Virus record (IMG/VR): IMGVR_UViG_3300048930_000991
Location: 1 to 64,000 of that record
Length of the DNA: 64,000 nt
From: a virus
Strand: one strand, 5' to 3'
Both the position numbers and the translations under genes were made by a program. Positions within the stretch are counted from its first letter, which is position 1; each line of letters begins with the position of its first letter. This document shows positions 12,506-60,219 of this stretch, one piece after another. Under the pieces are notes generated by a model that worked only from the letters and a program-made list of their open reading frames with translations, was not told the DNA's origin and made no database searches.

Positions 12506-14680
12506 CTACCCCCGCACCGTGTCGTAGGCCGCCCCGCCGCGGCGGATGGCATCCAGCGTCATCGCCGAGGCCTGCCGCGCAATCTGCCCGGCGAGCAGCC
12601 GCAGCCGCGCCTCGACGCCGGCATCGGCGCCGCGGGCGTCAATGCTGATGCTGGTGTGGATGGTCGGGCCGCCGCCGCCCGGGGCGACACCATTCGGCAG
12701 CACCGTCCCCGCCTGGCGCGGCACAAACCATTCGGGGCCCCGTTCGCCCACGACATAGGGCTGGCCGGCGGCGACCGGCCCGCCCTCGGCACGGAACAGC
12801 CCGCCGAGCCAGGAGCCGACATCGGTGAACAGGCTGTCGAAGGAGATCCCGGAGAGCCCGGCCGAGACGGCATTGCCCAGCGGCTCGGTGATGACCTTGC
12901 GGGCAAGGATGCGGGTGATGTCCTGGAGCAGGCCCTCCAGCACGGAGGAGAACTTCTCGCCCTTGACGATCGCGTCCTCGAAGGCGCTGGAGAAGGTCAG
13001 GCCAAGCTCCCGCACGACGTCGGAGGTGCGTTCCGCGCCGCGCTGCACACGCTCCTCCGCCCGCTCCAGCTCCTCCATCGCCGCGACCGCCTCGCGCTGG
13101 ATGGTCTCGTCAGGCACCGCCCGGCCGGCCCGTTCAGCCCGCTCCACCAGGGTGGAGAGATTGGCGAGGCGGCGCTGGTAGCGCTCATGGGCGGTCTCGT
13201 TCTGCTGGATCAGCCGCTCGCGCTCGCGCAGCAACTCGTTCAGCTCCCGCTCGGCCTCGCGCGCCTCCCGCGCGCCCTCGTTGCTGGCACGGCGGACGGC
13301 GGCGACACGCGGCTCCAGGCGGCGCAGCGCCTCGTCGCGCTCCTGCAGGGCGAGCGTCTCGAGGCGGGTGCGCTCGACCGCGGTGACGCCACCCGCAGCC
13401 TCCGCCTCGCGCAGGCGGCGGACCCGCTCCTCGTATTCCCGGTTGATCCGGAAGCGGTCGTCGAGGTCGCGGCTGAGCTCCTGGACGTCCTGCGTCGCCC
13501 GGCGCCGACGGGCGTCGGCGGCCTGGGCGGCGGCACTCTCCTGCTCCGTCCGCTGACGCTCCCCGGCGGCCTGCTCGCCGCGAGTGATCTCGGCCTGGAG
13601 GTCCGTGTATTGCCGGCGCAACTCCTCCAGCCGGGCGGCGCGATCCACCCCGGCCTGCTGCTCGGCGGTACCGACCAGGCCAGGACGGATGCTGCCGCGC
13701 CGCACTGGGGCGGTGAGGCTGGCGCGGCCGTCCTGCTGGCTTTCCAGCCGGGCGATCTGCGCCGCCAGCGCCTCGGCCTGGCGGCGCATGCCGGCGAAGC
13801 GTTCCTCCTCGCTGAGCAGGCCCGCACCCTGGCGGACGCCGTCCACCGCGCGGGCGGCAGCCGAGAGCGCTCGGGCCAGCGCATTGGAGAGGCCGATGGC
13901 GCGATCGAGCTGGCCCAGAAAATTCTCGGTCGCCGCGGTCAGCTGCCCGAAGGCGCGGCCGAGGGAGAGCGGCGCACGGTCGAGCTCGGCGCCGAGCCGC
14001 TCGGCCGCGCGCAGCAGGGCCGGAAAGACCCGCTCGGCGGTGAGCTTGCCCTCGCTGCCAAGCTTGCGGAGCTCGCCGATGGAGACGCCGAGTTCCTTGG
14101 CCAGCCCCTCGGCCAGCAGCGGCATGGCCTCGAGGATGGAGCGCAGCTCGTCGCCCTGCAGCACGCCCGACGCGAGTGCCTGGGCGAGCTGCAGCGTAGC
14201 CGAGGAGATCTCCTGCGTGGATGCGCCGGAGACGATGGCGACGCGCTGCAGGCCGCCGACGAGGCGGACCACCTGGTCGGAGGTGGCGCCGATCTCGCGG
14301 GCGGCGATCGAGAAGCGCTGGAAGGCGTCGACACTCTCGGAGACCGCGACGCCGGTGGACAGTGCATTGTGGTACAGCGCCTCGTAGACTTGGCCGGCGC
14401 GCTCGACCGAGCCGGTGGCGTTCTGCAGGCGCGAGAGGCTCTGGGTGAGCGCGTCGCCGGCCTGGACCAGGGCACGGGCCGCCACCGCCACGCCGGCGAG
14501 CTGGATCCCCCGCACGGCGACGTCGAGCAGGTCGAGCGAGCGCGAAGCGCGTTCGGCGCCGCCCGTGATCTGGTCGAGCGAGCGCTGGCCGGTCTCGCCG
14601 ACCTCGCGCAGGCCAGCCTTGACCCGGGCGGCATCGTCCAGCGACAGGCGGACCGAGACGCGGCGGGTGGCGTCGGCCAT
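12506..14680 (-). CDS. Tail tape measure protein
   Basis: This 724-residue protein begins one base after the frameshifted chaperone ORF ends. It is rich in long alanine/arginine/glutamate helices (for example residues 380-600 with EREL, RERERL and ERAERAGRAV), predicted coiled coil. An N-terminal segment (about residues 60-260) resembles the conserved TMP core domain. A short Gly-rich hydrophobic region (NAVSAGLSGISFDSL) precedes a PYVVGERGPEWFVP motif common near tape measure C-termini. It sets tail length and enters the host envelope. Tape measure proteins of this class are usually 600-1,000 residues, so this one appears complete. Confidence 0.88.
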   Translation of the reverse strand: MADATRRVSVRLSLDDAARVKAGLREVGETGQRSLDQITGGAERASRSLDLLDVAVRGIQLAGVAVAARALVQAGDALTQSLSRLQNATGSVERAGQVYEALYHNALSTGVAVSESVDAFQRFSIAAREIGATSDQVVRLVGGLQRVAIVSGASTQEISSATLQLAQALASGVLQGDELRSILEAMPLLAEGLAKELGVSIGELRKLGSEGKLTAERVFPALLRAAERLGAELDRAPLSLGRAFGQLTAATENFLGQLDRAIGLSNALARALSAAARAVDGVRQGAGLLSEEERFAGMRRQAEALAAQIARLESQQDGRASLTAPVRRGSIRPGLVGTAEQQAGVDRAARLEELRRQYTDLQAEITRGEQAAGERQRTEQESAAAQAADARRRRATQDVQELSRDLDDRFRINREYEERVRRLREAEAAGGVTAVERTRLETLALQERDEALRRLEPRVAAVRRASNEGAREAREAERELNELLRERERLIQQNETAHERYQRRLANLSTLVERAERAGRAVPDETIQREAVAAMEELERAEERVQRGAERTSDVVRELGLTFSSAFEDAIVKGEKFSSVLEGLLQDITRILARKVITEPLGNAVSAGLSGISFDSLFTDVGSWLGGLFRAEGGPVAAGQPYVVGERGPEWFVPRQAGTVLPNGVAPGGGGPTIHTSISIDARGADAGVEARLRLLAGQIARQASAMTLDAIRRGGAAYDTVRG

Positions 14681-14681
14681 G

Positions 14682-15008
14682 TCAGGTCGTCTCCCCCTCG
14701 CGGCGGGCGGCAGCGCCCTCGGCCATGCCGCTGCGGATGGCGAGCAGCAGTTCGGCGGCGGCCCAGCCGGTGGCGCCCAGTTCCCGTGCCGCGGCGAGCG
14801 CGCCGGCGGTATCGAGCGTCAGGCCGGCCATGGTCGCCTCAGCGCAGGCCGTGCAGGCGGACCAGCAGGCATGGCCCTCGACGCTGCTGGGGGCATGGGC
14901 GGTGTAGGGGCAAGCGTCCGTGCAGTCGCGCTCGAAGGCGGCGCAGCCGCGGCAGTATTCGGGCCCGCGGCCAAAATGCCAGGCGGCGCGGACCCTTAGC
15001 CGTTTCCC
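14682..15008 (-). CDS. Cys-rich extension of the tail chaperone, expressed by -1 frameshift (GT product)
   Basis: Downstream of the chaperone stop there is a continuous open frame with no start codon of its own before 14853. It is entered from the GGGAAAC heptamer at 15008-15002 by a -1 shift. It encodes 106 residues ending GETT, one base before the tape measure ATG. The first half has seven cysteines (EYCRGC, RDCTDACPY, HACWSACTAC), suggesting bound metal; the second half is helical (ELGATGWAAAELLLAIRSG). The fusion would be about 230 residues. By analogy with lambda gpG-GT it would chaperone the tape measure. An internal ATG could give only the last 49 residues. Confidence 0.75.
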   Translation of the reverse strand, partial: GKRLRVRAAWHFGRGPEYCRGCAAFERDCTDACPYTAHAPSSVEGHACWSACTACAEATMAGLTLDTAGALAAARELGATGWAAAELLLAIRSGMAEGAAARREGETT

Positions 15009-15373
15009 TCGGCGGCCACCGCGGCGACCGGGGCGGTGGCGCGGTCCCAGAAGGCGGCCGCGATGTCGTCGAGGTCCATCAGGCGTTCGACCGCCTCGGG
15101 CGAGAGCGGCAGCGGCTTGCCCGCGGCATCACCGACGCCCTCCCAGCCAGTGACGGCGTGCCGCGCCAGCGCCTTGACGAGGAAGGCGAAGGAGAGGCCG
15201 CGCGACATGTCAGGGTCGAGGTCCGGATCGGCGAGGCGGATCGCGGCGAGACGGCGCGCGGCGGCGGCCTGCGCCGCGGCCATGACGGCGGTCGTCACCG
15301 GCCGGATCTCGACGCGCACGCCGCGCGGCAGGTCGAGCCAGTACGGCTCGGCCGGGAGGTCGAGTGTGAGCAT
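14996..15373 (-). CDS. Tail assembly chaperone (gpG-like)
   Basis: This 125-residue protein starts at MLTLDLPAEPYWLDLP. An in-frame ATG further up adds 18 poorly matching residues and is probably not used. The protein is Ala-rich and helical with an SPEAVERLMDLDDIAAAFWDRA C-terminal segment, typical of the small G-type chaperones that precede tape measure genes. The GGGAAAC slippery site lies in its last codons, so part of the product should be extended into the Cys-rich frame. The adjacent upstream DNA is the Lamassu insertion, which separates it from the tail tube gene. The operon promoter must therefore be reached across the cargo or supplied locally. Confidence 0.8.
   Translation of the reverse strand: MLTLDLPAEPYWLDLPRGVRVEIRPVTTAVMAAAQAAAARRLAAIRLADPDLDPDMSRGLSFAFLVKALARHAVTGWEGVGDAAGKPLPLSPEAVERLMDLDDIAAAFWDRATAPVAAVAAEGNG
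15002..15008 (-). other. Slippery heptamer for -1 programmed frameshift
   Basis: On the coding strand the sequence is G-GGA-AAC in the zero frame, exactly the X-XXY-YYZ pattern used for -1 slippage. It ends four bases before the zero-frame TAA stop. A 106-codon open frame continues in the -1 frame to the tape measure gene. Lambda uses GGGAAAG at the same place between G and T. The downstream G+C-rich stretch could form a stimulatory structure, but I did not fold it. Confidence 0.78.
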
Positions 15374-15669
15374 TTGCAACTCCGTCGTTGAGGCAGGATC
15401 CGCAGGCGCCTTGCGGCACTGCGGCATGACGCTTGGGCGATGATCGGCCTCGGCCAGGGGAGCCGACGCGTGGAGCGAACCGCCAGGTCTGCCCCTCAGC
15501 GGTCCGTTACCTACGGCCCATCAAGGTCTCGTTTCAGGCGCTGGTGGACATGCCTGCTGGGACTAGAGGATCAACGGCCATACGCCCATCTCAGCCACTC
15601 CAGATCCAGGTGGCTCTGACCAAAAGCGGCCGTGCTGCTGCTAAGGCGACAGGAGGTCGCAGCGCTTCG
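15374..15669. other. Intergenic junction between the tail chaperone and lmuB
   Basis: These 296 bases separate the phage tail gene from the end of the defence operon. No convincing coding frame is present on either strand. The decamer CGGCATGACG at 15422-15431 also occurs at 20473-20482 on the other side of the defence operon and might be a target-site trace, or chance. GGTCGC (15655-15660) and GCGACC (15684-15689) bracket the last codons of lmuB and could form a weak hairpin. Confidence 0.4.
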
Positions 15670-18096
15670 CTATGCAGCGACAAGCGACCTTTCCTCATGG
15701 TAGCTGTAGCGCCGCGAGAGACACCGTGTATCCTGCTGCGGCCCGCGCGTGAGCTCGAGCGTTAGTAGGCTGTCCGTCGGGAAAGCGGGGCTGAGTTCGA
15801 GGCGGAGATACTCGAACAGTTGACGATCGTGCACCGCGATAACCACCTGACGCTTGTGTTCCTTCGAAAGGGTGCGCAACAGCGCGGCGAGATGCGCGAT
15901 GTGGACGTCGTCCATCGACTGCACCGGATCATCGAGGATTAGCCAAGGCAGCGTCCGGGGCACCGAGAGGTGTAGTGCGAGGAAGAGCGTCAGGGCGGCA
16001 GTGTTGAGATTGCCGGCGCTGAGCATGGCGCCGGGCGTGCCTCCGACAGCGCCGCCGTCGCGGTGATCGGTGACGAGCCGAGGCTGGATCCGCTGGGTGC
16101 CCGCAGCAGGTATACGGAACGCGGGGATAAACGGCTCTCCGGGCGCCAGCCGGACGAAGAGGTCGCGCCATAGACGATTGAGGCGCTCGTTGAACTCCCT
16201 TCGGATTATGCCGGAGCGGATGGTGTCCACGGCGTCCCGGATCTTCGTGCCCTGCGCCCTGACCTTCTGAGCACGCTTCTGCGCGTCGTTCACCTTCTTG
16301 AGCGCCTGTTCGTTCTCGCCGAGGCCCTCGGAAATGCTGTCGCTCCGAGCCTGCAGGGTTCTGATCGTCGCCACGGCTTCCCGTCCCCTGCGACGTGCGG
16401 CGAGCCTGTCCTCCAGCCGCCTTAATTCAGTGTCGAGGAGAAGCTGAATTCTTGCACCGGCTCCCACCGGATCCTCTCCGTCCGCCACCGGGTCTCCCGC
16501 GACGGTCCGAGCGAAATCCGACAACGTCTGCCTTGCTGCGGTCAGGGCGACACTACGGGACTGCGCCTCGGTCACCGCTCGCCTAGCCACCACTTCGGCG
16601 GTGCGCAAGCGAGCCCCTTCCCTCAGCGTGTCAATCATGTTTGCGAGTTCCGTCCGGGCCGCATGCAGGTCGGCTACGGCGCGATCGAGACCAGCAAGCG
16701 TTCGGTCATCTAGCACCGCCTGTTCCAGCGCCGCGATCTCTCGATCAAGCCGGTCTACCTGCGTCTGGGCTTCTGTCCTGGTACGTCCGAGCGCGAGAAG
16801 CCGCTGAGCCGATGACGATAGGCTCCGGACCTTGGCATGGACGTGCTCGACGAGGTTGCCGTCATGAACCTCCGCATAGTCGCGGTCGCACACCGGGCAG
16901 GTGTCTCCATCTATGAACGACGTAAGTTCCGAGAGGATGGAACCCAGACCGCCCGATGAGGCCGGAATATCAGCCATTTCGGCATCGATCGTCTTCACTC
17001 GGGACCGCGCGACTTCGACCTCTCCCTGCGCAGTCCCAAGTCGCTCGGCGTCAGTCTTGGCCTTGGTGCTCCGGGCCGACGCGTGCTCGCTTCGCACGGC
17101 CAGCTGTCGCAACGCCGCGTCCGAGAACGCCGCCATGTCGCCCGGCAGGGATATATCCGAGAGCAGCGCCTCGATGCGTGCCCTGAGCGCCAAGTAGCGT
17201 TCCCCGTTCGCCGCCTCCCAGTGGCCGTAGGCGCCGGGCGCCGCAGCGGTGGGATCGGCTATTGATCCAGCGGCCGGCTGGGCCTTCGCCGCCTCCGCGA
17301 TCTCGCGGCGGATCGATGCCAGCTGGCGTCGGTGATCGGTGATCGACGCGAGCGCTTGTTCGTCCTCGTCCGGCCTGAGTTCCGCCTCGATCGCGCCGAG
17401 CGTGCGGTCGTCGAGTTCCAACGACAGATCGAGCGCAGCGGCTGCACTTCGGATCGTCACCATCTGGTGGCCGATATCCTTGGTGACCTGGAGCAGGCTG
17501 GTCCTCTGATCCTCGATCAGGGCATCGATCCGCGTCTTCTCTAACTCGTTGTCGGACCACCCATCGACGATCTTGCGAACGTTGCGGACGTCTCCAAGCG
17601 GCTTGAGGCCGGACTCGATGGCATCGAGGCGGTCGAGACGAAGGAGCTCGCCCACGAACCGCGCGAGCGGCGAGTCCGCGCCGCTGCCGGAATCCTGGTA
17701 GATCTGCAGCAGCTGACCGAGCAGCGCCTGCGGAAGGTAGCTCCGCTCGCTGAAGAAGGTGGTGAGAGGCCCGTCCAGCGGGATGGCCGACGTTACCCCC
17801 TCTGCCGACAGCGTCGCGCGGTACAGCGCCGAGGTGTTGCCTATCGTCGTCTTCACCGCCACGCTGCCCTGTGCGGCCGAGCGGTGCATGAGCTGCGTGG
17901 CAAAGTCGGGATCCGCACGCCGCAGCGACTGCACGCTTCCGGTCAGCGCCAGTTCGATAGCAAAGAGAAGGCTCGTCTTGCCGGCACCGTTCTCGCCGTG
18001 GATGAGTACGACCTGGGCATCGAGCGGGGCGTGCACGTGTCCACGGATGCTGCGGAAGTCGACGACGTCGAGTTCTTTGAGAAGAAGGTCGGTCAC
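15670..18096 (-). CDS. lmuB: Lamassu SMC-like ATPase LmuB (zinc-hook)
   Basis: This 808-residue protein is a RecF/Rad50-type ABC ATPase. Walker A GENGAGKTS is at residues 34-42. Two long helical arms flank a zinc hook, CPVC, near residues 399-402. The ABC signature region MLSAGNLNTAAL is near 690, Walker B LPWLILDDPVQSMDD near 722, and a switch histidine in VVIAVHDRQLF near 750. GTG start; its start overlaps the stop of the middle gene (GTGA). In Lamassu systems this subunit senses foreign DNA ends or structures and releases the effector. The length and architecture are normal for LmuB. Nearest alternatives are general Rad50-like repair ATPases, but the three-gene context argues against them. 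Confidence 0.85.
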   Translation of the reverse strand: MTDLLLKELDVVDFRSIRGHVHAPLDAQVVLIHGENGAGKTSLLFAIELALTGSVQSLRRADPDFATQLMHRSAAQGSVAVKTTIGNTSALYRATLSAEGVTSAIPLDGPLTTFFSERSYLPQALLGQLLQIYQDSGSGADSPLARFVGELLRLDRLDAIESGLKPLGDVRNVRKIVDGWSDNELEKTRIDALIEDQRTSLLQVTKDIGHQMVTIRSAAAALDLSLELDDRTLGAIEAELRPDEDEQALASITDHRRQLASIRREIAEAAKAQPAAGSIADPTAAAPGAYGHWEAANGERYLALRARIEALLSDISLPGDMAAFSDAALRQLAVRSEHASARSTKAKTDAERLGTAQGEVEVARSRVKTIDAEMADIPASSGGLGSILSELTSFIDGDTCPVCDRDYAEVHDGNLVEHVHAKVRSLSSSAQRLLALGRTRTEAQTQVDRLDREIAALEQAVLDDRTLAGLDRAVADLHAARTELANMIDTLREGARLRTAEVVARRAVTEAQSRSVALTAARQTLSDFARTVAGDPVADGEDPVGAGARIQLLLDTELRRLEDRLAARRRGREAVATIRTLQARSDSISEGLGENEQALKKVNDAQKRAQKVRAQGTKIRDAVDTIRSGIIRREFNERLNRLWRDLFVRLAPGEPFIPAFRIPAAGTQRIQPRLVTDHRDGGAVGGTPGAMLSAGNLNTAALTLFLALHLSVPRTLPWLILDDPVQSMDDVHIAHLAALLRTLSKEHKRQVVIAVHDRQLFEYLRLELSPAFPTDSLLTLELTRGPQQDTRCLSRRYSYHEERSLVAA

Positions 18097-18704
18097 GCTT
18101 TCTCCTCCTTATCCCGTAAAGCGGCATCGATCAGTCGGGCGATCGCGGTGGTCACGGCCTCCTCGCCGTGCTCCGCCGCCGCCATGATCGCCTCGATGGT
18201 ACCGCTGTCCACAGTATTCGCCAGCGCAGCCCGCAGCTGTTCCTGCGCCGATCCGGCTTGGTCCTCCGGACCCGACTGCGGGATCGAGAGTGGCAACAGC
18301 ACCCGGATGCTATCTTCCAGCCGGCGGAGGTCCGGCGTGCCGTCGTCACAGAGGGGAAGCGTGTCGACGTGCAGGACGCGGGCCGTTTCTGCGAGCGATT
18401 CCATGTCGCTCGAGAGCGCAGCGCCGGCCAGCACCACGGTCAGGACATATCTGGATGCGGTTACATCGAGAGCACGGCTCATCGCTTGAACGCGGTGACG
18501 GACGCGAGCGCCGTCGCTGTCTCCGAAGTCTCCTGCCGTTGTGTCGATCAAAAGTACAAGATCCAGCGCGCGCCCGCGCCTGCCACGCAGCGCTCCCGTG
18601 AACTGGAACTCGACGCCGGCGATCCTGAATGGAGTCGGAAGATCGTCATACTCAGCCTCGTGGAGGCGCTGCCTTATTGCGGCTATCAGCGGGGAGTCGA
18701 TCAT
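18093..18704 (-). CDS. lmuC: Lamassu middle component LmuC-like
   Basis: This 203-residue protein has no motif I can name. The N-terminal half is a mixed alpha/beta fold (LDLVLLIDTTAGDF, SRYVLTVVLAGAAL) and the C-terminal half is helical and acidic (EQLRAALANTVDSGTIEAIMAAAEHGEEAV). It is locked between the SIR2 gene (ATGA overlap) and the ATPase gene (GTGA overlap). Small, poorly conserved middle proteins with exactly this position are typical of Lamassu (DdmB in Vibrio) and of ABC-three-component systems. There they bridge the effector and the SMC dimer. The name is inferred from position and size. Confidence 0.7.
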   Translation of the reverse strand: MIDSPLIAAIRQRLHEAEYDDLPTPFRIAGVEFQFTGALRGRRGRALDLVLLIDTTAGDFGDSDGARVRHRVQAMSRALDVTASRYVLTVVLAGAALSSDMESLAETARVLHVDTLPLCDDGTPDLRRLEDSIRVLLPLSIPQSGPEDQAGSAQEQLRAALANTVDSGTIEAIMAAAEHGEEAVTTAIARLIDAALRDKEEKA

Positions 18705-20455
18705 AGCAGCACCTCCGCCACGAACGTCGCGCGCAGCCCATCGATGTCGCCGGATACGCGCAGCATCTCGCCGACGCTGACATGGGATGGCTCCAGCGTT
18801 CCCGTCCTACCAGGTGCGCTGCCGGGCGACCTGCCTGATCGAACCGCCATCGTTCGATGCCACGTGTCGTCCGAATGAATCACGAGGGCGTTGTCGTTTG
18901 CGTACGCTCCATCCGACTGGAGACGGATTGCCTCCGACACCGACTTCACGAGGAAGACGGGACGGATCGGCGCGCCGGGACGATCGGCCTGAAGCGATGC
19001 CACGCCAGCGGTCAGCTCATCACCGGTCGGCGGCTTGACGGACCATTTGCCTGAAGATCGACCATGCTCCAGTAGGGCCAACGTGACGGCGAGATGGCCG
19101 AGGTTCGAGCTTCGGGCGTTCTGATCGGCGGCTAGAATCGCGGCAGTCGACTGGCTGACTTGCTCGTATGCGGTGGGATCACGCTGAAGGGTACCGCCGC
19201 GGAAGACCGACAGAAGTCGCGACCAGTATGCGATTCCCTGGTTCACCGCGGGCGTACGGTCTTCGGCGACGGCGTCGACGGTCGCGCCAGCAGCGAAGAG
19301 GTCACGCAGATCGTTCAGCGATTCAGTCAGCTCGGCGCAGAGCGCGGCCTTGCCGATGGCCGCTAGCGCGAGTTCCATGAGGCAGGCTAGCTTGTCGGTT
19401 ATTGTCTTGAGCACCAACGCGATCAAGACCTGTTCGCCCCAGGCCCGCATGTGACAGGCACGGTGTATGTCGACAATGTTGCCGTTGTAGGCGCCACCGT
19501 AGACCAGGCGCAGGACATCGACCTGCCCCTGCTTGATCTCGTCCTCGCAGAAGACGTGTCCCGGGGCGTCCGGTTCGCAAGGCCATGGCCAGGGATTTAT
19601 GGCCGTTGCCTCGGTGAAGACGGCCTGAAGGTTCATGTCCTGGATCGACAGGCCTAGCACCAGCGACTTCTTGTTCGTTGCCACGTCGCGGACCGCGTTC
19701 CGCATCGCCGCGAAGTCCTGATTGTAGGGCCACCTGCCTATTTGCGTGTGACTACCGGTAAGGAATCGTCGATATTTTGCCTCGTCCTGCTGCGCATGCT
19801 CGACGCACCCGTGGAATTTGAGCAGCGTGGCCTTGCCAGGCGGATCGCGAAGCTGACCAGGATCGACGACGATCTGCAGCAGTCCGGGCACGCTGCCGCC
19901 GAGACGCCGGACGGCGGCCTCGATGAAGCCGTCCCAGTTCGCGGAGGCGATCGTCTGAACCGCGCCCTCAAGCACCAGGATCGCGATGCACAGGTGCGCG
20001 GCTGCCGGCGGGGCCGGGTGCGCGAACTGCCGTCGGATGTCAATCGCGTTCCAAAGGATGAAGTCTGAAGGCTCGTCCGGAATGCGGATATCAAGGATAC
20101 GGGAGTAGCTGTTCCAGAGCGTGTCGACGATCTGCTTGCGGAGCGCCCATTCGTCGAACGGCCGGTGCAGGTCGGATCCGATCGTGGCGCGATCCAGACC
20201 AGCAAACCTGAGTGCCTCGTCCAGCGCCGGCAGGTAATCCGCGGCAATCGCCGGATTTGAGGTGCATGCCCGAATATACTCCATCGCTGCAGCGATCAGC
20301 CCGCCAAGGCTTGGCGCCCGTCTCGAGATGCCGGAGCCGATCCACAGCGCGAACTCGCCGTTCTCGACCGCCTTCGCGGTCGATGCGAATTCCCCGTCGA
20401 GCTTCGCCAGTACCTGGCGCACAGTTATGTCAGTCGCGCTGGGCACAAGACCCAC
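18701..20455 (-). CDS. lmuA: SIR2-domain effector, Lamassu LmuA (Sir2 type)
   Basis: This 584-residue protein has an N-terminal SIR2-like fold: GSGIS at residues 40-44 for the dinucleotide loop, SANWDGFIE at 171-179 with the Asn and Asp that hold NAD, KFHG at 213-216 with the catalytic His215, and VLGLSIQDMNL near 266-276. The remaining 300 residues are helical and not recognised. Defence SIR2 proteins deplete NAD+ once activated, causing abortive infection. GTG start, with GGGGAGG placed well upstream. It is the first gene of a three-gene coupled operon with the middle protein and SMC ATPase, which matches the Lamassu-Sir2 subtype. Confidence 0.82.
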   Translation of the reverse strand: MGLVPSATDITVRQVLAKLDGEFASTAKAVENGEFALWIGSGISRRAPSLGGLIAAAMEYIRACTSNPAIAADYLPALDEALRFAGLDRATIGSDLHRPFDEWALRKQIVDTLWNSYSRILDIRIPDEPSDFILWNAIDIRRQFAHPAPPAAAHLCIAILVLEGAVQTIASANWDGFIEAAVRRLGGSVPGLLQIVVDPGQLRDPPGKATLLKFHGCVEHAQQDEAKYRRFLTGSHTQIGRWPYNQDFAAMRNAVRDVATNKKSLVLGLSIQDMNLQAVFTEATAINPWPWPCEPDAPGHVFCEDEIKQGQVDVLRLVYGGAYNGNIVDIHRACHMRAWGEQVLIALVLKTITDKLACLMELALAAIGKAALCAELTESLNDLRDLFAAGATVDAVAEDRTPAVNQGIAYWSRLLSVFRGGTLQRDPTAYEQVSQSTAAILAADQNARSSNLGHLAVTLALLEHGRSSGKWSVKPPTGDELTAGVASLQADRPGAPIRPVFLVKSVSEAIRLQSDGAYANDNALVIHSDDTWHRTMAVRSGRSPGSAPGRTGTLEPSHVSVGEMLRVSGDIDGLRATFVAEVLL

Positions 20456-20688
20456 GGTATGCCTCCCCGATCGGCATGACGTGCGTCACCCGTAACCGCT
20501 GAAAGGCTATGTACATTCCAGTAGCAAGGCAACGGGATGTCGCAAACCGCGAACTGCTGACGGCCTCGCTGGCCGGAGCCCGGCGGTTTTGCTCAGCCGC
20601 TGCGGATAGAGGTTGGAGTGGAAATCTACATGCCCGGCCCTATACAGCCACTTTCGCCCAAGGCAGCCCTCAGACATCGCGATAGCCG
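20456..20688. other. Upstream region of the defence operon / tail tube junction
   Basis: These 233 bases lie between the start of the SIR2 gene and the end of the tail tube gene on the same strand. They must hold any dedicated promoter of the defence operon. The ribosome-binding site for the SIR2 GTG is at its left edge. The base composition is less G+C-rich than in the phage genes. CGGCATGACG at 20473-20482 matches a decamer at 15422-15431. I see no gene. Confidence 0.4.
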
Positions 20689-21645
20689 TCACGCATACTC
20701 GGTCCCGGCTTGCTGGTTCTTGAGCACCGCCGTCATCATTCGGGTGGCGGTCGCGTTGTAGGCGGCCCGGAACTCGAACGCCGCCTCGACGCCGCCCGGC
20801 CCTTCGACCGGCGTCTTCGCCAGCGCCAAATAGACCTCGTGCAGCGTGAAGGTCAGGCTGCGGTTGGCGTCGATCGTGTAGCTGAAGGCGAACTCTGCAG
20901 CGGCGTTGTTCTGCGCCTGCGTCAGCAGCGTGGTGTCCGCGAAACGCGCGGTGATCTGCCCGGTGGCGCGCGCGATGCCGGGATCCACGCCCTCGACCTT
21001 CCGGTCGGCGCGGATGGTGCGCACCATCTCCATGCCGTTGGCGTAGGTGAGCCGTGCCCCGGTCACCTGCGCGAGCGCCGAGCCGTTCCGACTGATCGTC
21101 CCCTGCGCCTTGTGGAAGGCCGTGTAGGCGGCGCTGGTCGGCGTGCCGCCTGAACTCGAGGCGCCGCGCGTCGAGCCCTGCCCCATCAGCCCGAAGGTCG
21201 CGGTGGCGGGCCCGGTCGGCGAGAAGTCGATCTCCAGCGTGTCGGCGCGCACCCCGGTGCAGAGATCGTAGTTCGGCACGTCCGGATAGCCGATCTCGAC
21301 GCTGTTCGAGGGCAGCGCCGCGGCGCCCGAGCCGAAGCTGTGGATGAAGTTTGGGCTGGTGCCGGTGGTGGCAGGCGGGCCGAGCAACAGGCGCAGCCAG
21401 TGCCCTATGTTGATCAGGTCCACCGGCACCACCGCCTGGCCCTGCACGGTGACGGTATCGAGGAAGGGTGCCGCCGGATCGCGGCTGCTGCCGACGCCGA
21501 TGACGTCGGCATCGAGCAACGGCTGCTCGGCACCGAGGTCGCAGGAGAGGAAGGGCATACGCAGCCAGTCGCCCGCGGGCGCGGTGCCGTAGGTCGCCTC
21601 GGGGATCATGAGCAGACGGCAATTGGCGCCGATGGCACGGGGCAT
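20689..21645 (-). CDS. Major tail tube protein
   Basis: This 318-residue protein starts MPRAIGANCRLLMIPEATYG, a common opening of siphovirus tail tube proteins of this type. It is beta-rich, with alternating hydrophobic strands (TLEIDFSPTGPATATFGLMG, NRSLTFTLHEVYLALAKTP) and a C-terminal EFRAAYNATATRMMTAVLKN segment. It is preceded by tail completion genes and followed, after the inserted defence operon, by the tail chaperone. Phage tube genes are normally adjacent to the chaperone. The gene itself looks intact. Confidence 0.8.
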   Translation of the reverse strand: MPRAIGANCRLLMIPEATYGTAPAGDWLRMPFLSCDLGAEQPLLDADVIGVGSSRDPAAPFLDTVTVQGQAVVPVDLINIGHWLRLLLGPPATTGTSPNFIHSFGSGAAALPSNSVEIGYPDVPNYDLCTGVRADTLEIDFSPTGPATATFGLMGQGSTRGASSSGGTPTSAAYTAFHKAQGTISRNGSALAQVTGARLTYANGMEMVRTIRADRKVEGVDPGIARATGQITARFADTTLLTQAQNNAAAEFAFSYTIDANRSLTFTLHEVYLALAKTPVEGPGGVEAAFEFRAAYNATATRMMTAVLKNQQAGTEYA

Positions 21646-53471: not shown

Positions 53472-56400
53472 ATGGCTATCGCAACGATCAAGCAGCTTTG
53501 CACGCCCAATGCTGTCGTCACCGGCGACAGCCTCGTTGAGCAAGTTGCGCAGATTGATGATCTCGCCAAAGGCAAGGTCGATGGCCGTGAATTCTTCCGA
53601 CGAAATCACTTCACCTCCGGCCTAGACTTGCTCGTGAAGCGCGGGTTCGATCGGCTCGCGGGCAAGTCAGAAGATGGCGCCTTCTACCTCACCCAGGCCA
53701 TGGGAGGAGGAAAAACCCACAGCCTCATCGCATTCGGGCTTTTGGCTTCAGACCCCGCCCTCAGGCGGGAAATCGTGCCGCGCATCGTCACGGGCTCGGA
53801 ATTCGGCGCGGCCAAGGTGGTCATCTTCAACGGCCACCAGAACCCGGAGACCCTCCTCTGGGGCTACATCGCCGAACAGCTCGGCCGGCCTGATGTGATG
53901 GCGCCGTTCTGGCGTAGTGGTGCGAAGACACCCGGCGTCGATGAATGGGTGCAGGCCCTCGGCACCGAACCCGTTCTCATCCTTTTGGACGAGCTGCCCA
54001 GCTACCTCCAGATGGCCCAGGGCGAGCCGGTGGGCGCCACAACCCTCGGCGACCTGACGATCGGCGCCTTGGAGCGGCTGTTCAACGCGCTGCCGCGATG
54101 CCCGCGTGCCTGCGTCGTCGTCACCAATCTGAAGGACGACGTGTACCTGGAGGGCTCAGGCCAGCTCCGCACGCTGATTGAGAGCCTGACCAAGCACTAC
54201 GATCGCAACGCCCAGGCCATCACGCCCGTCCAGCAAAACTCGGGCGAGGTCTTCGCCATTGTCCGAAAGCGCCTCTTCGACGGCTTGCCCAGCGCGGACC
54301 GGATCGACGAGATCGCGCAGGCCTACGTTGCCGCTCTCCAGAAGGCCAAACGGGTCGACACGATCCCCACCACGCCGGAGACCTTTGTCGAGCGCATCCG
54401 GGAAACCTACCCGTTCCATCCGTCGATCCGCGACATCGTCGCCCGTTTCGCCGAGAATCGCGGCTACCAGAAGACGCGCGCCCTAATCCGTTTGCTTCGC
54501 CTCGCCGTCCGGGGCGCGATGGCGAGCAATGGCAACGCATTCCTGGTCGGCCTCCAGCACCTCGATTTCAACGACCAGGCCACGATCGAGGAAATCCGGA
54601 AGATCAACCCGGCCTATAGCAACGCAATCTCGCGCGACGTCTCCGACCGCGGCAACGCCCTCGCCGAGAAGATCGACGCGATCGACGGCAACACGACCGC
54701 ATCGGGTGTTGCGAAGCAGCTGCTGATGTCCTCGCTCTCCAACGCTGAGTCCCCCCTGCGCGGCCTCACAGACGGCGAGCTGATCGAGACCCTGGTTGAT
54801 CCCCTGCTCGAAGTCTCCGAGATCAAGACCGCGCTCAGCCGCATTCAGGGCCAGGCTTGGTATCTCTTTCAGGGCATCGATCAGCGCGTATTCTTTGGCC
54901 AGACGGCCAACGTCACCGCTGAGATCACCGAGATCGCGGCCAACATCGCCGAGGAACAGGTCGACCAGACCCTGCGTGAGAAGCTGCGCGAGGTCTTCAA
55001 GCCGCGGGCCGGGGCGCTGTACTCGGACAAGATGGCCATCCTGCCGGCGCTGGATGAGATCCAGCTCGACGACGAACGCCCCACGCTGGTGATCCTGGAA
55101 CGGCCCGCCGACAAGCTGCCGCAGGACTTCGTCGACTGGTGGAACAAGCAGGACCTGCAGAACCGCGTCCTCGTCCTCACCGCCGACCCCAATGCCGTCA
55201 CCACGCTGCGGCTCAGCGCGCGACGCATGAGAGCCATCGGCAAAGTGGAGGAGCGCATCAAGGCGCAGCACGGCCAGGGCTCGCCGCAGATGGCCGAACT
55301 CGATGGCGTGCGCGACCGTGAAGCGGCCAACTTCACCAGCGCCCTGCGCGAGACCTTTAAGACCATCGTGTTCCCGATGACGAAGGCGCTGCGTCGCGTG
55401 GACGACTTCCGCATGGAGTTCGACCGCAACGACTACTCCGGCGAGCAGCAGATCATCGACACGCTGACGAAGCGTGGCAAATTCATCCCGAGCGATCAGT
55501 TCGACGGCAAGTTCGAGAACATCCGGCTCGATGCTGAGGACATGCTGTTCGACGCCGACGCAGTGCAGGCATCGTCGTTGCGCCGCAATGCTGCTGTCCG
55601 CTCCGGCTGGTTCTGGCTGCCGAAGGGCGGGCTGGAGCAGTTGGTCCGCACCGCCGTGCAGCGAGGCTTCTGGCGCGAGAAGGAGGGCCTGGTCGCCAAG
55701 AAGTGGGAACGCCTGACGAAGGTCACCGCCCGGCAGGATGACTTCGCCCAGGACCCGATGGTCACCGGCCGCTTCCAGATCAACGTCACCCCCGAGGATG
55801 CCGACATCGTCTATGTGTCGGAGAGCGGCCCTCCCGACCCCGCAAAGGCCACCAGGCTGGATGGGCGCGTCTATGAGACGGCGGCACCGGCGGTCTGGTT
55901 CCTCGGCGTCGATTCCAAGGGCGTGGCGAAGACCGGCGCTGCCTGCGAGTGGCGCGCGACCCTGCGCGTGAAGCCCGACGTGCGGCGCCTGGCCACCGGC
56001 TATCGCGTGGCGCTCCTGGCCATCCCGCGGGCTGCAACGATTCGCGCGACCTTTGACGACACCGACCCCCGGACCGGGCCGGAGGTGCCGCACGCTGAGA
56101 TCGATGCGCCGCCCAACGCCCGCAAGCTGCGCGTGGTCGCGGAACTGCATGGACAGTTCAGCCAGGAGGAAACCGCTCCGCTGGCGACCGGCATGGATGA
56201 AGGCCCCTTCAACCCAAGCAAGCCGAAGCTGAAGCCCGACGCCCCTGTCACCATGATCTCCAAGTTCGAGCCGAAGGACACCGCGGCGGCTTTCTCCGCG
56301 CTCGACCGCTTGGCGAAGCTGCCGGAAGCAAAGGTGCTTGGCGGCACGATCGACTTGAACGGCATGCGGTCGGAGGCGGATTTCCTCACGCTCCGTCTGG

Positions 56401-56591
56401 GGCGTGACGTGCCCATTCCCGCTTCGGCACTCGATCAGAAAGTGAAGGATTTGCTGGCCTTGCTCTCCGCCGAGGCGCCCACGGTGAAGCTCCGGCTCGA
56501 CGGTATTGCCTTTCCGTCCGGACGGGACCTCATGGCCTTCTGCGACGCGGCAGGTGAGGATTTCGACCGCGTCGCCTGGAAGCAGGACTGA
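53472..56591 (+). CDS. DUF499 AAA+ ATPase, anti-phage-associated
   Basis: This 1039-residue protein has Walker A QAMGGGKTHS near residue 77 and a Walker B/sensor stretch EPVLILLDELPSYLQ near 155. VVVTNLKDDVYLEG follows. The N-terminal start IKQLCTPNAVVTGDSLVEQVAQIDDL is typical of the family. The C-terminal third is beta-rich and may bind partners. In known loci DUF499 proteins are encoded with DUF3780, DUF1156 methyltransferase and PLD-helicase genes, as here. The ATPase probably drives DNA inspection or remodelling. It starts the operon with only 64 bases of leader after the recombinase cassette. Confidence 0.85.
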   Translation: MAIATIKQLCTPNAVVTGDSLVEQVAQIDDLAKGKVDGREFFRRNHFTSGLDLLVKRGFDRLAGKSEDGAFYLTQAMGGGKTHSLIAFGLLASDPALRREIVPRIVTGSEFGAAKVVIFNGHQNPETLLWGYIAEQLGRPDVMAPFWRSGAKTPGVDEWVQALGTEPVLILLDELPSYLQMAQGEPVGATTLGDLTIGALERLFNALPRCPRACVVVTNLKDDVYLEGSGQLRTLIESLTKHYDRNAQAITPVQQNSGEVFAIVRKRLFDGLPSADRIDEIAQAYVAALQKAKRVDTIPTTPETFVERIRETYPFHPSIRDIVARFAENRGYQKTRALIRLLRLAVRGAMASNGNAFLVGLQHLDFNDQATIEEIRKINPAYSNAISRDVSDRGNALAEKIDAIDGNTTASGVAKQLLMSSLSNAESPLRGLTDGELIETLVDPLLEVSEIKTALSRIQGQAWYLFQGIDQRVFFGQTANVTAEITEIAANIAEEQVDQTLREKLREVFKPRAGALYSDKMAILPALDEIQLDDERPTLVILERPADKLPQDFVDWWNKQDLQNRVLVLTADPNAVTTLRLSARRMRAIGKVEERIKAQHGQGSPQMAELDGVRDREAANFTSALRETFKTIVFPMTKALRRVDDFRMEFDRNDYSGEQQIIDTLTKRGKFIPSDQFDGKFENIRLDAEDMLFDADAVQASSLRRNAAVRSGWFWLPKGGLEQLVRTAVQRGFWREKEGLVAKKWERLTKVTARQDDFAQDPMVTGRFQINVTPEDADIVYVSESGPPDPAKATRLDGRVYETAAPAVWFLGVDSKGVAKTGAACEWRATLRVKPDVRRLATGYRVALLAIPRAATIRATFDDTDPRTGPEVPHAEIDAPPNARKLRVVAELHGQFSQEETAPLATGMDEGPFNPSKPKLKPDAPVTMISKFEPKDTAAAFSALDRLAKLPEAKVLGGTIDLNGMRSEADFLTLRLGRDVPIPASALDQKVKDLLALLSAEAPTVKLRLDGIAFPSGRDLMAFCDAAGEDFDRVAWKQD

Positions 56592-56596
56592 CGATC

Positions 56597-57268
56597 ATGG
56601 CCCACGCCCCCGCCGCACCCGCACCCGCCAGCTTCGACTGCGCCGACATCTATCAGGAGCACGGCTTTCTCGTGCGCCTCACCAAGGGCCGCGACGCGAA
56701 GGTGCAGGTGTTCGAGGTCTTCGGCCGCCCGCCGACGGAACGCGAACCGCAATGGGCGCCCGAGACCATTCTGCGCTGCGAGGCCGCGCGCGAGGTCTGG
56801 GACGTCGTCTCGCCCGAGGCGCGCGCCGAGTTCAACCGGCGCCTGAAGACAGAGAACCGTCCGGCGGGGCGCTGGGGTGCGGATGAGACGGCCGTGCAGC
56901 GCCTGTTCGGCAAGGAATTGCTGGTGCTGCTCTGGGCCATCGAGCTGCCTGACGTGAAGCCGGAGGAGGTCGGCGTCGCGATCCGCAACTGGCTGGGGCT
57001 GAAGCCCGAGGAGCGCTGGTGGCTCTACACCATGACCGCTGCCGGCACCGGGCTGGCGCACCAGGCTGGCATGGGGTGGCGCGGCGCCCTGCGGCAGGCG
57101 CTGTGCTTCGGCACCCGCCACGACGCCTTCCACCTGGGGGCGGTGACCGGCCGCGGCACGCTGGAGCCGCGGTTGAATGCCCAGTACGTGCAGCCGAAGC
57201 GCAAGCCAAGCCGCAAGAAGAGTGATGACCCTGGCTTCTTTTTCGCTCCGGCGCTGCCGGCCGAATGA
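56597..57268 (+). CDS. DUF3780 protein, anti-phage-associated
   Basis: This 223-residue protein starts MAHAPAAPAPASFDCADIYQ. The sequence is largely helical with conserved aromatic clusters (LLWAIELPDVKPEEVGVAIRNWLGLKPEERWWLY). A basic tail (KRKPSRKKSDD) could bind nucleic acid. It is between the DUF499 and DUF1156 genes, the typical place for DUF3780. The last four bases overlap the next start. Its biochemical role is unknown. Confidence 0.8.
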   Translation: MAHAPAAPAPASFDCADIYQEHGFLVRLTKGRDAKVQVFEVFGRPPTEREPQWAPETILRCEAAREVWDVVSPEARAEFNRRLKTENRPAGRWGADETAVQRLFGKELLVLLWAIELPDVKPEEVGVAIRNWLGLKPEERWWLYTMTAAGTGLAHQAGMGWRGALRQALCFGTRHDAFHLGAVTGRGTLEPRLNAQYVQPKRKPSRKKSDDPGFFFAPALPAE

Positions 57269-60216: not shown

Positions 60217-60219
60217 CCC

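What the first reader, a model, noticed from the sequence alone, without database searches (positions are those of the whole stretch)
15374..20688. Lamassu-Sir2-type defence operon inside a prophage tail operon
The three genes SIR2 effector, 203-residue middle protein and zinc-hook SMC ATPase are coupled by four-base overlaps. They lie between the tail tube gene and the tail chaperone gene, which are normally adjacent. The cargo therefore sits where it might be read along with late phage transcription, or it may insulate itself with its own promoter. A resident phage defending its host from competitors is the natural reading. Seen: motifs and order. Known: Lamassu architecture. Inferred: function and timing.
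Basis: partly seen in the sequence, partly recalled or inferred. Interest (0 to 1): 0.85.

Follow-up and report, generated by a model that had tools for sequence, protein, structure and literature searches.

The report
Swappable defence cassette in prophage tail
A three-gene, probably cell-suicide anti-virus operon sits exactly between two normally touching tail genes of a prophage, at a spot where almost every related prophage examined carries other genes, a good share of them defence-like, which makes the spot a useful place to look for new bacterial immune systems.

Summary

(1) The junction is a near-saturated exchange port. Of 69 bridging relatives (tube 82-97% identical) 67 carry 0.6-7.0 kb there, 2 are empty; with the window, 68 loads form 50 DNA clusters, while two neighbouring junctions are never enlarged (0/75, 0/78). 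Conservation stops at the tube stop and resumes at the chaperone ATG. 17 of 50 load types are defence- or toxin-like, including two PADLOC-recognised Lamassu operons.

(2) The operon works like Lamassu but is not filed there: MID shows no relation to LmuC (profile probability 0.1-0.4%) and has a PD-(D/E)XK-like predicted fold without a conserved lysine; Walker B reads D-D, against D-Q in the four best-scoring LmuBs, though the two load Lamassus lack D-Q too. The triple occurs in 20 genome-assembly loci, five plasmid loci read (three beside Hachiman, restriction or DNA-methylase genes) and one other viral contig. Its upstream region came with it, so its own promoter is likely.

Best reading: an autonomous NAD-depleting abortive-infection cassette in a phage cargo port. 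Activity is untested.

The parts
20689..21645 (-). tail tube gene, left border of the port
   Evidence: Pfam Phage_tube_2 9e-53; conservation ends at its stop codon in 50 cluster representatives
15374..20688 (-). whole cargo (5315 bp) in the tube/chaperone port
   Evidence: exact interval between tube stop and chaperone ATG; blastn homology to 12 related prophage loci stops at 20689 in 6 and at 15373 in 8, the rest within about 110 bases; GC 64.3% against 69.6%
20507..20532 (-). promoter-like pair TTGCCT-N15-CATAG upstream of SIR2
   Evidence: same arrangement 76-77 nt upstream in two Sphingomonas copies; pattern chosen after viewing the alignment; the generic scan does not list it
20477..20488 (-). 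palindrome TGACGNNCGTCA between promoter-like pair and ribosome-binding site, possible operator
   Evidence: present in the window, L002 and L003 only (3 of 25 upstream regions); single copy in the window, 0.07 expected
18701..20455 (-). SIR2-domain protein, predicted NADase effector (584 aa)
   Evidence: SIR2_2 1.4e-6; model pLDDT 85.6, closest ThsA/SPARSA/KomC/DSR2, VIA Z 17-19 over about 250 residues; G40, S41, G42, N173, D175, H215 invariant in 20 sequences
18093..18704 (-). middle protein MID (203 aa), PD-(D/E)XK-like predicted fold, probably non-catalytic adaptor
   Evidence: no meaningful family hit; model pLDDT 76.5, pTM 0.58; Foldseek XisH 7.6e-4, VIA best Z 8.9 to a Pyrococcus repair endonuclease; no lysine among invariant or 90% conserved columns in 21 sequences
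15670..18096 (-). Rad50/LmuB-like zinc-hook SMC ATPase (808 aa), predicted sensor
   Evidence: PADLOC LmuB 1.9e-33; Walker A GENGAGKTS, CPVC hook C400/C403, LSAGN signature, LDDPVQSMD Walker B, HD loop, invariant or nearly so in 21 sequences; Rad50 hook structures found by profile
14996..15373 (-). tail assembly chaperone, right border of the port (likely start ATG 15373)
   Evidence: phrog_313 1.1e-16; relatives and RcKvothe chaperone align from 15373
12506..14680 (-). tape measure gene, next tail gene
   Evidence: Pfam TMP_3 5.9e-51

Best explanation
A resident prophage carries an autonomous three-gene abortive-infection cassette in a fixed exchange port of its late tail operon. Proposed working: a dimer of the Rad50-like SMC protein, joined at its zinc hook, senses foreign DNA ends or replication structures; the small middle protein, a PD-(D/E)XK-fold adaptor that has probably lost nuclease activity, couples SMC to SIR2; the SIR2 protein then destroys NAD+ and stops the infected cell. 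In the lysogen the operon is expressed from a promoter it brought with it. Shown: gene order, conserved motifs, purifying selection, co-occurrence, defence-gene company on three of five plasmids read, exact insertion between tube stop and chaperone start, and near-saturated turnover of unrelated cargo there. Inferred: NADase activity, DNA sensing, abortive infection, the adaptor role, and timing of expression. How cargo is swapped is unknown; homologous recombination through the conserved tube and chaperone genes is the simplest guess.
For: Triple kept together: SIR2, MID and SMC in 20 of 20 full genome-assembly loci, SMC 36-73% identical, plus one cut by its contig end; the same 2 of 385 genomes ring for MID and for SMC in separate searches, one of the 2 being the seed genome. 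Plasmid copies beside Hachiman hamA and an N-6 methylase, a type I restriction gene and an N-6 methylase. SIR2 model matches ThsA, SPARSA, KomC, DSR2, with invariant N173 and H215. LmuB is the top PADLOC family of the SMC. Port: 67 of 69 loaded against 0/75 and 0/78 at two neighbouring junctions and 5/61 at the next; 50 clusters; step-like loss of conservation. Own upstream region. Orientation of the 27 load types with an identified gene: 12 with, 14 against, 1 both relative to the tail operon, so loads as a class do not depend on late transcription.
Against: No activity was measured and no experiment on this family was found. Two of five plasmid neighbourhoods read are not defence-rich (metabolic; integrase and a toxin-antitoxin pair). 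The simple promoter scan found no sigma-70 site upstream of SIR2 (1 site in the region, elsewhere, 0.7 expected), and no terminator-like site on the coding strand; flank RNA is not unusually folded. The SIR2 C-terminal half has no assigned role. MID's fold match rests on a middling model and Z of 7-9, a level the tool calls common. 10 of 50 load types have recognisable non-defence genes, 18 have no domain in the proteins scanned and 5 were not Pfam-scanned, so the port is not purely a defence port.
Confidence: 0.72

Rival explanations
1. It is a true Lamassu (LmuABC) operon with a Sir2 LmuA whose LmuC has diverged past recognition.
For: Same order and 4-bp overlaps as two alphaproteobacterial operons with top-scoring LmuBs, L146 and L149; LmuB top hit; profile comparison of SMC with six LmuB-type proteins 96.7% over residues 27-460, including the hook; a review lists SIR2 among LmuA domains (PMC10586767, passages). 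A DefenseFinder subtype called Lamassu-Sir2 is recalled, not tested.
Against: MID has no LmuC match and a different-looking predicted fold; Walker B D-D in 21 of 21 against D-Q in 4 of 4 top-scoring LmuBs, a weak point since the Lamassu loads L079 and L089 have D-T and D-E; HMMs of the three proteins match none of the ORFs kept from four top-scoring LmuB loci at E 0.1.
Confidence: 0.2
2. The cassette is transcribed mainly with the late tail operon and acts during the phage's own lytic phase, for example against co-infecting phages.
For: It is co-oriented with the tail genes and sits between two late genes; no terminator-like site was found on the coding strand.
Against: Upstream region shared with genome-assembly copies; load types at the same site point either way, 12 with and 14 against.
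Confidence: 0.12
3. The SIR2 protein senses incoming tail proteins, like DSR2, rather than being triggered by the SMC.
For: DSR2 is among the closest folds of the SIR2 domain and several PDB entries show it with a tail tube protein; the gene lies beside a tube gene.
Against: The listed similarity lies mainly in the common SIR2 domain; the triple occurs in genome assemblies and plasmids without such tail genes beside it; MID and SMC are kept in all 20 full loci.
Confidence: 0.04
4. A DNA-repair or recombination module of the host, carried by chance.
For: The ATPase is Rad50-like; the plasmid annotations attach a double-strand-break-repair term to it.
Against: Rare (2 of 385 genomes), found on plasmids and a prophage, kept with a SIR2 protein, beside defence genes on three plasmids.
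Confidence: 0.03

Closest known systems
Lamassu (LmuABC / ABC-3C / DdmABC)
   Same: effector - small middle protein - Rad50-like zinc-hook ATPase, 4-bp overlaps; SIR2 is a listed LmuA domain (PMC10586767, passages)
   Different: middle protein not recognisably LmuC and PD-(D/E)XK-like; ATPase 808 aa against about 650; D-D instead of the general D-Q in Walker B; weak LmuB score
SIR2 NADase effectors (ThsA, DSR2, SPARSA, KomC, SIR2-HerA)
   Same: SIR2 domain fold (VIA Z 17-19 for the best) and conserved N and H
   Different: own C-terminal half, partnered with MID and an SMC
P2/P4 defence hotspots (PMC9122126, passages)
   Same: high-turnover locus of about 1-5 kb between two conserved phage genes, stocked with anti-phage systems
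   Different: other phage lineage and gene pair: inside the tail morphogenesis operon, at a stop/start junction; up to 7 kb
Tab moron of Pseudomonas phage JBD26 (PMC10884400, passages)
   Same: defence gene in the late operon; Tab points against it and has its own promoter; about half of the identified loads here point against the operon too
   Different: single 83-residue gene between terminase genes; here multi-gene systems at tube/chaperone
Regions of genomic plasticity of P. aeruginosa Mu-like phages (PMC4378225, passages)
   Same: accessory genes at fixed positions between core genes
   Different: those are mainly 34-100 codon ORFs; here also whole operons up to 7 kb

Membership tests
Lamassu (LmuABC) | three overlapping genes in order effector, middle, SMC-like | tested here: met
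   operons L146 and L149 laid out alike
Lamassu (LmuABC) | SMC/Rad50-like LmuB with zinc hook | tested here: met
   PADLOC LmuB 1.9e-33, 114.5 bits; hook CPVC invariant, Rad50 hook structures by profile. In one search 14 of 385 genomes ring for that model: four at 340-452 bits, one of ours (G298) at 112, nine others at 90-148; the seed genome's copy did not pass 1e-25
Lamassu (LmuABC) | Walker B Glu-to-Gln change, said to be general in LmuB | tested here: not met
   D-D-P in 21 of 21; D-Q in 4 of 4 top-scoring LmuBs. Weak criterion: the PADLOC-recognised Lamassu loads have D-T (L079) and D-E (L089)
Lamassu (LmuABC) | middle protein homologous to LmuC | tested here: not met
   no PADLOC hit; hhalign 0.4% and 0.1% against LmuC-type sets of 5 and 2 sequences. 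The review says LmuC is lacking in some systems
Lamassu (LmuABC) | LmuA C-terminal docking domain | not tested
   the C-terminal half was not folded or searched apart; no LmuA model matched the protein
Lamassu (LmuABC) | anti-phage or anti-plasmid abortive activity | not testable with these tools
   needs expression assays
SIR2 NADase defence effector | SIR2 fold with catalytic Asn and His | tested here: met
   the catalytic role of N173 and H215 is inferred from homologues (recalled)
PD-(D/E)XK nuclease (for MID) | fold | tested here: inconclusive
   Foldseek 7.6e-4 to XisH, VIA Z 7-9 to several nuclease-type proteins; model pLDDT 76.5, so suggestive only; that these proteins share the PD-(D/E)XK fold is recalled
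PD-(D/E)XK nuclease (for MID) | conserved D-(D/E)xK active site | tested here: not met
   no lysine among invariant or 90% conserved columns of 21 sequences
Phage defence hotspot / moron site | variable load between two conserved phage genes | tested here: met
   67 of 69 loaded, 50 clusters with the window, neighbouring junctions 0/75 and 0/78
Phage defence hotspot / moron site | foreign composition | tested here: met
   load GC below tube GC in 60 of 67 loads, not below in 7; L053 lacks a full tube
Phage defence hotspot / moron site | own transcription | tested here: inconclusive
   shared upstream region and promoter-like pair, pattern chosen after viewing; consensus scan negative there

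The most novel reading that the evidence does not exclude
The tube/chaperone junction of this prophage lineage is a dedicated, nearly always loaded cargo port with a very large pool of unrelated immune and fitness cassettes. Many of the loads that match no known family are undiscovered defence systems, and the SIR2-MID-SMC cassette is a separate kind of SMC-based immunity in which an inactivated nuclease-fold adaptor, not LmuC, gates a NADase.
Probability: 0.4. Interest if true: 0.82.

Novelty: new variant of a known kind. Interest (0 to 1): 0.68.

Why it matters
A single gene junction, recognisable by the tail tube and chaperone genes on either side, marks a place where one phage lineage keeps exchanging whole operons, many of them defence-like, inside its tail module. 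That gives a direct way to mine unknown immune systems (18 of 50 load types showed no recognisable domain in the proteins scanned), a system for asking how phages avoid harming themselves with their own cargo, and a natural experiment on how loads are swapped without conserved flanking sequence outside the two genes. The SIR2-MID-SMC operon may be a second way of wiring an SMC sensor to a toxic effector.

Tried and rejected
Tail-factor idea: rejected, since 69 bridging relatives lack the three genes at that place and the triple lives without such tail genes elsewhere. Housekeeping RecF/RecN/SbcC: rejected as identity; against E. coli SbcC only residues 7-59 around the P-loop align. Terminators or RNA structure insulating the load: five terminator-like sites (2.7 expected) are all on the other strand; fold z-scores -0.67 and +0.52. 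Site-specific insertion motif or target duplication: no conserved bases outside a ribosome-binding-site-like bias before the chaperone. Palindrome TGACGNNCGTCA as a general operator of the family: only 3 of 25 upstream regions. MID relatives in viral contigs by single-sequence search and in phage records: none; SIR2 profile in viral contigs: none. L116 does carry all three genes (SIR2 31%, MID 29%, SMC 35-41% identity) but was reached only through the SMC profile; L117 is a weak SMC hit only. PDB by sequence: nothing for MID, one meaningless 0.39 match for SIR2. No chain described as Lamassu stands among the listed fold matches of MID; that excludes nothing. Family searches of the window's neighbouring genes gave tail, connector, holin and DUF6441 annotations. 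Host not identified.

Limits: ORFs in the loads were called by a greedy longest-ORF script, so antisense shadows are possible; only the first 25 of 101 PADLOC families were shown for the 95-protein scan, and L079 and L089 were matched to its Lamassu tallies through; one of 49 non-window load types (L048) had no ORF of 95 aa and was left out of that scan; Pfam was run on one or two proteins of 44 of the 50 load types, window included; L037 was only PADLOC-scanned and L048, L059, L081, L097, L100 had no Pfam scan. Clusters are DNA clusters (blastn E 1e-10, 40% of the shorter), so some share a protein type (L078 and L080 both TctC; two ParE groups), and a few loci may be near-duplicates from related samples. 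The search for related loci kept the best 80 of 190 stretches; 11 of the 80 did not bridge the junction and were dropped. The minimum of -445 in the DUF6441-terminator control probably comes from partial alignments. In one search the MID gene of L151 was lost by the greedy ORF picker, although the same genome rings for MID; two of the four top-scoring LmuB loci (L147, L148) show no middle gene in that picker, so only L146 and L149 show the full order. The genome-assembly loci may be chromosomal or plasmid; L021 and L022 have equal identities to the window proteins and are close kin. L022 was left out of the alignments.
Full report
What is there. On the minus strand of the window the tail tube gene (20689-21645) ends, 233 bp follow, then SIR2 (18701-20455), a 203-residue middle protein MID (18093-18704) and an 808-residue SMC ATPase (15670-18096), each overlapping the next by four bases, then 296 bp to the tail-chaperone ATG at 15373, and later the tape measure gene. 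The record is a 65413-base IMG/VR virus record. Nine RcKvothe structural genes, from terminase to chaperone, have homologues in the same order on the minus strand. Host was not identified; GC in 500-bp windows is mostly 70-79% in the flanks and 62-69% across the insert.

The three genes are one unit. A scan of one genome per species found 22 loci; one (L023) was a partial SMC match. Of the other 21, 20 carry SIR2, MID and SMC side by side and one is cut by its contig end; 19 of 20 keep both 4-bp overlaps. Two of the 20, L021 and L022, are close kin. Searches of 385 alphaproteobacterial genomes with MID and, separately, with SMC ring in the same two genomes, one of them the seed: rare and together. 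dN/dS against five relatives is 0.12-0.36 for all three genes. None of the 21 contigs shows homologues of the window's tube, chaperone, tape-measure or two other head-tail genes in the DNA held. The SMC also matches 16 plasmid records, 15 of them Rhizobium, Agrobacterium or Ensifer. I read five neighbourhoods: pMOC1 has the triple beside Hachiman hamA and an N-6 methylase, an A. fabrum plasmid near a type I restriction gene, an R. rosettiformans plasmid near an N-6 methylase, an A. tumefaciens plasmid near an integrase and a toxin-antitoxin pair, and an R. ruizarguesonis plasmid among metabolic genes. The annotation there names them SIR2 family protein (four of five; hypothetical in the A. tumefaciens plasmid), hypothetical protein and AAA family ATPase. 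In viral contigs only L116 was found to carry the whole triple.

What each part looks like. SIR2: Pfam SIR2_2; the model (pLDDT 85.6, pTM 0.88) matches ThsA, SPARSA, KomC and DSR2 at VIA Z 17-19 over about 250 residues, and G40-S41-G42, N173-W-D175 and H215 are invariant in 20 sequences. NADase activity is inferred from these homologues. SMC: Walker A, hook CPVC, signature, Walker B and H-loop are conserved in 21 sequences; its profile finds Rad50 hook structures; the top PADLOC family is LmuB; profile comparison with six LmuB-type proteins gives 96.7% over residues 27-460, while E. coli SbcC aligns only around the P-loop. MID: no meaningful family hit; model pLDDT 76.5; Foldseek finds XisH (7.6e-4) and VIA finds a Pyrococcus repair endonuclease (Z 8.9), AF1548 (8.8), EndoMS (8.5) and others at Z 7-9, a level the tool warns may be only a common arrangement. 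No lysine is conserved in 21 sequences, so a working PD-(D/E)XK site is unlikely.

Lamassu or not. A review describes Lamassu as LmuA effector, small LmuC middle component (lacking in some systems) and LmuB, often with a zinc hook and generally with a Glu-to-Gln change in Walker B, and lists SIR2 among LmuA domains (PMC10586767, passages). Order and overlaps agree, and operons L146 and L149 look alike in layout. But MID shows no relation to two LmuC-type sets (0.4% and 0.1%); Walker B reads D-D in 21 of 21 against D-Q in the four top-scoring LmuBs, although the Lamassu loads L079 and L089 have D-T and D-E, so this point is weak; the LmuB score is 114.5 bits for the window and 112 for a relative, against 340-452 for the four best, with nine other alphaproteobacterial proteins at 90-148; and HMMs of the three proteins match none of the ORFs kept from the four top-scoring LmuB loci. 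I therefore do not file it as Lamassu; it works like one.

The port. Scanning viral contigs with the tube protein gave 80 loci (82-97% identity; 190 stretches matched). In 69 of them both tube and chaperone are present. Two are empty: in L101 the tube stop overlaps the chaperone ATG, in L052 13 bp separate them. The other 67 hold 595-6992 bp. None of the 80 carries the window's three genes. With the window, 68 loads fall into 50 DNA clusters. In the same loci the DUF6441-terminator junction is never enlarged beyond 400 bp (0 of 75), nor is terminator-tube (0 of 78), while chaperone-tape measure is in 5 of 61. Across 50 cluster representatives conservation falls from about 2 bits at the last base of the tube stop to 0.07 at the next base, and returns at the chaperone ATG, preceded only by a ribosome-binding-site-like bias. 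Of 12 related loci compared by blastn, most match the window at 82-90% nucleotide identity and L052 and L101 at 72-84%; homology ends at 20689 in 6 of 12 and at 15373 in 8 of 12, the rest within about 110 bases. The same load type occurs with tubes only 81% identical, and tubes 93% identical carry unrelated loads: loads move independently of the backbone. Load GC is below tube GC in 60 of 67.

What the loads are. Of 50 types, 17 look like defence or toxin genes. By PADLOC: the window, Lamassu in L079 and L089, IetA with a subtilase in L073, GmrSD in L082, BilD and RmrA in L037, PDC-S64 in L090, TIR-NLR in L055 and a caspase in L063. By Pfam domain: inactive sirtuin-STAND in L060, SIR2-STAND in L099, Mrr in L066, HEPN/Toprim in L030, NERD in L076, ParE in two groups (one member of each scanned) and NYN in L088. 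Ten have other recognisable genes (L027, L029 below cut-off, L045, L054, L058, L062, L071, L078, L080, L085), 18 have none in the proteins scanned and 5 were not Pfam-scanned. Among the 27 with an identified gene 12 point with the tail operon, 14 against it and one has both.

Age of the site. In distant relatives the junction is mostly closed: 12 bp in RcKvothe, a 1-base overlap in a Synechococcus phage, a few bases in Shinella and Paracoccus prophages, and a 1-base overlap in L153, L154 and L155 counting the stop codon. It is loaded in L127, a human-faecal phage with a 39.5%-identical tube, where 2.7 kb encode an ArsR-like regulator, two membrane proteins and thioredoxin-like proteins by eye; the Methylobacterium prophage L124 has about 230 bp. 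In L126 and L159 no chaperone was found.

Expression. The cargo brought its upstream region: homology to the Sphingomonas copies reaches 37-80 bp before SIR2, and the last 80 bp contain a promoter-like pair at the same distance in the window, L002 and L003. A different pair of the same type stands 65-77 nt upstream in 8 further loci; so 11 of 25 have one. The patterns were chosen after viewing; shuffles gave at most 2 of 25 for either pattern and the inside of the gene 0 of 24. The generic scan found no site there.

Mechanism proposed. SMC dimer as DNA sensor, MID as adaptor, SIR2 as NAD-depleting effector, abortive infection against competing phages. Only anatomy and association are shown; every biochemical step is inferred. 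Precedents for defence loads in phages are the P2/P4 hotspots (PMC9122126, passages), the Tab gene in a late operon, reversed and with its own promoter (PMC10884400, passages), and plasticity regions of Mu-like phages (PMC4378225, passages). Searches of the held open-access library listed no paper, as far as titles and abstract starts of the rows shown tell, on a tube/chaperone port; most subscription papers are not held.

Noticed in passing
L027, L028, L034, L054, L078 (chaperone to tape measure): A second, rarer load site: 1.6-3.2 kb between chaperone and tape measure in 5 of 61 loci.
   Followed up: partly
L153 8925-10388; L154 6891-8261: In a distant lineage the tube/chaperone junction is closed but a large ORF, not the tape measure by eye, follows the chaperone, suggesting that loads can sit on its other side.
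   Followed up: no
L123, L124, L125 (DUF6441 to tail terminator): Prophages on Shinella, Methylobacterium and Paracoccus plasmids show 0.7-2.2 kb between the DUF6441 gene and the terminator gene, a junction not enlarged in 75 loci of the window's lineage.
   Followed up: no
L127 6261-8829: Load of a human-faecal phage at the same junction: thioredoxin-like, membrane, ArsR-like and permease genes by eye.
   Followed up: no
L034, L036, L038, L040, L049, L067, L102: One load type recurs in 7 loci across tubes as little as 81% identical; L040 has a reversed ParE-type toxin gene. The palindrome CATGTCAGACTTTGACATG lies in 5 of the 7 loads, with near copies in the other two: a likely operator.
   Followed up: partly
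L122 6001-6939 (OP858991.1): The tail tube homologue of this Synechococcus phage is annotated as a XerD recombinase, apparently a misannotation.
   Followed up: no
window 53472-62967: Three long plus-strand ORFs (1039, 983, 915 aa) outside the minus-strand structural module; one region has a weak match (0.001) to an RcKvothe minor tail protein.
   Followed up: no
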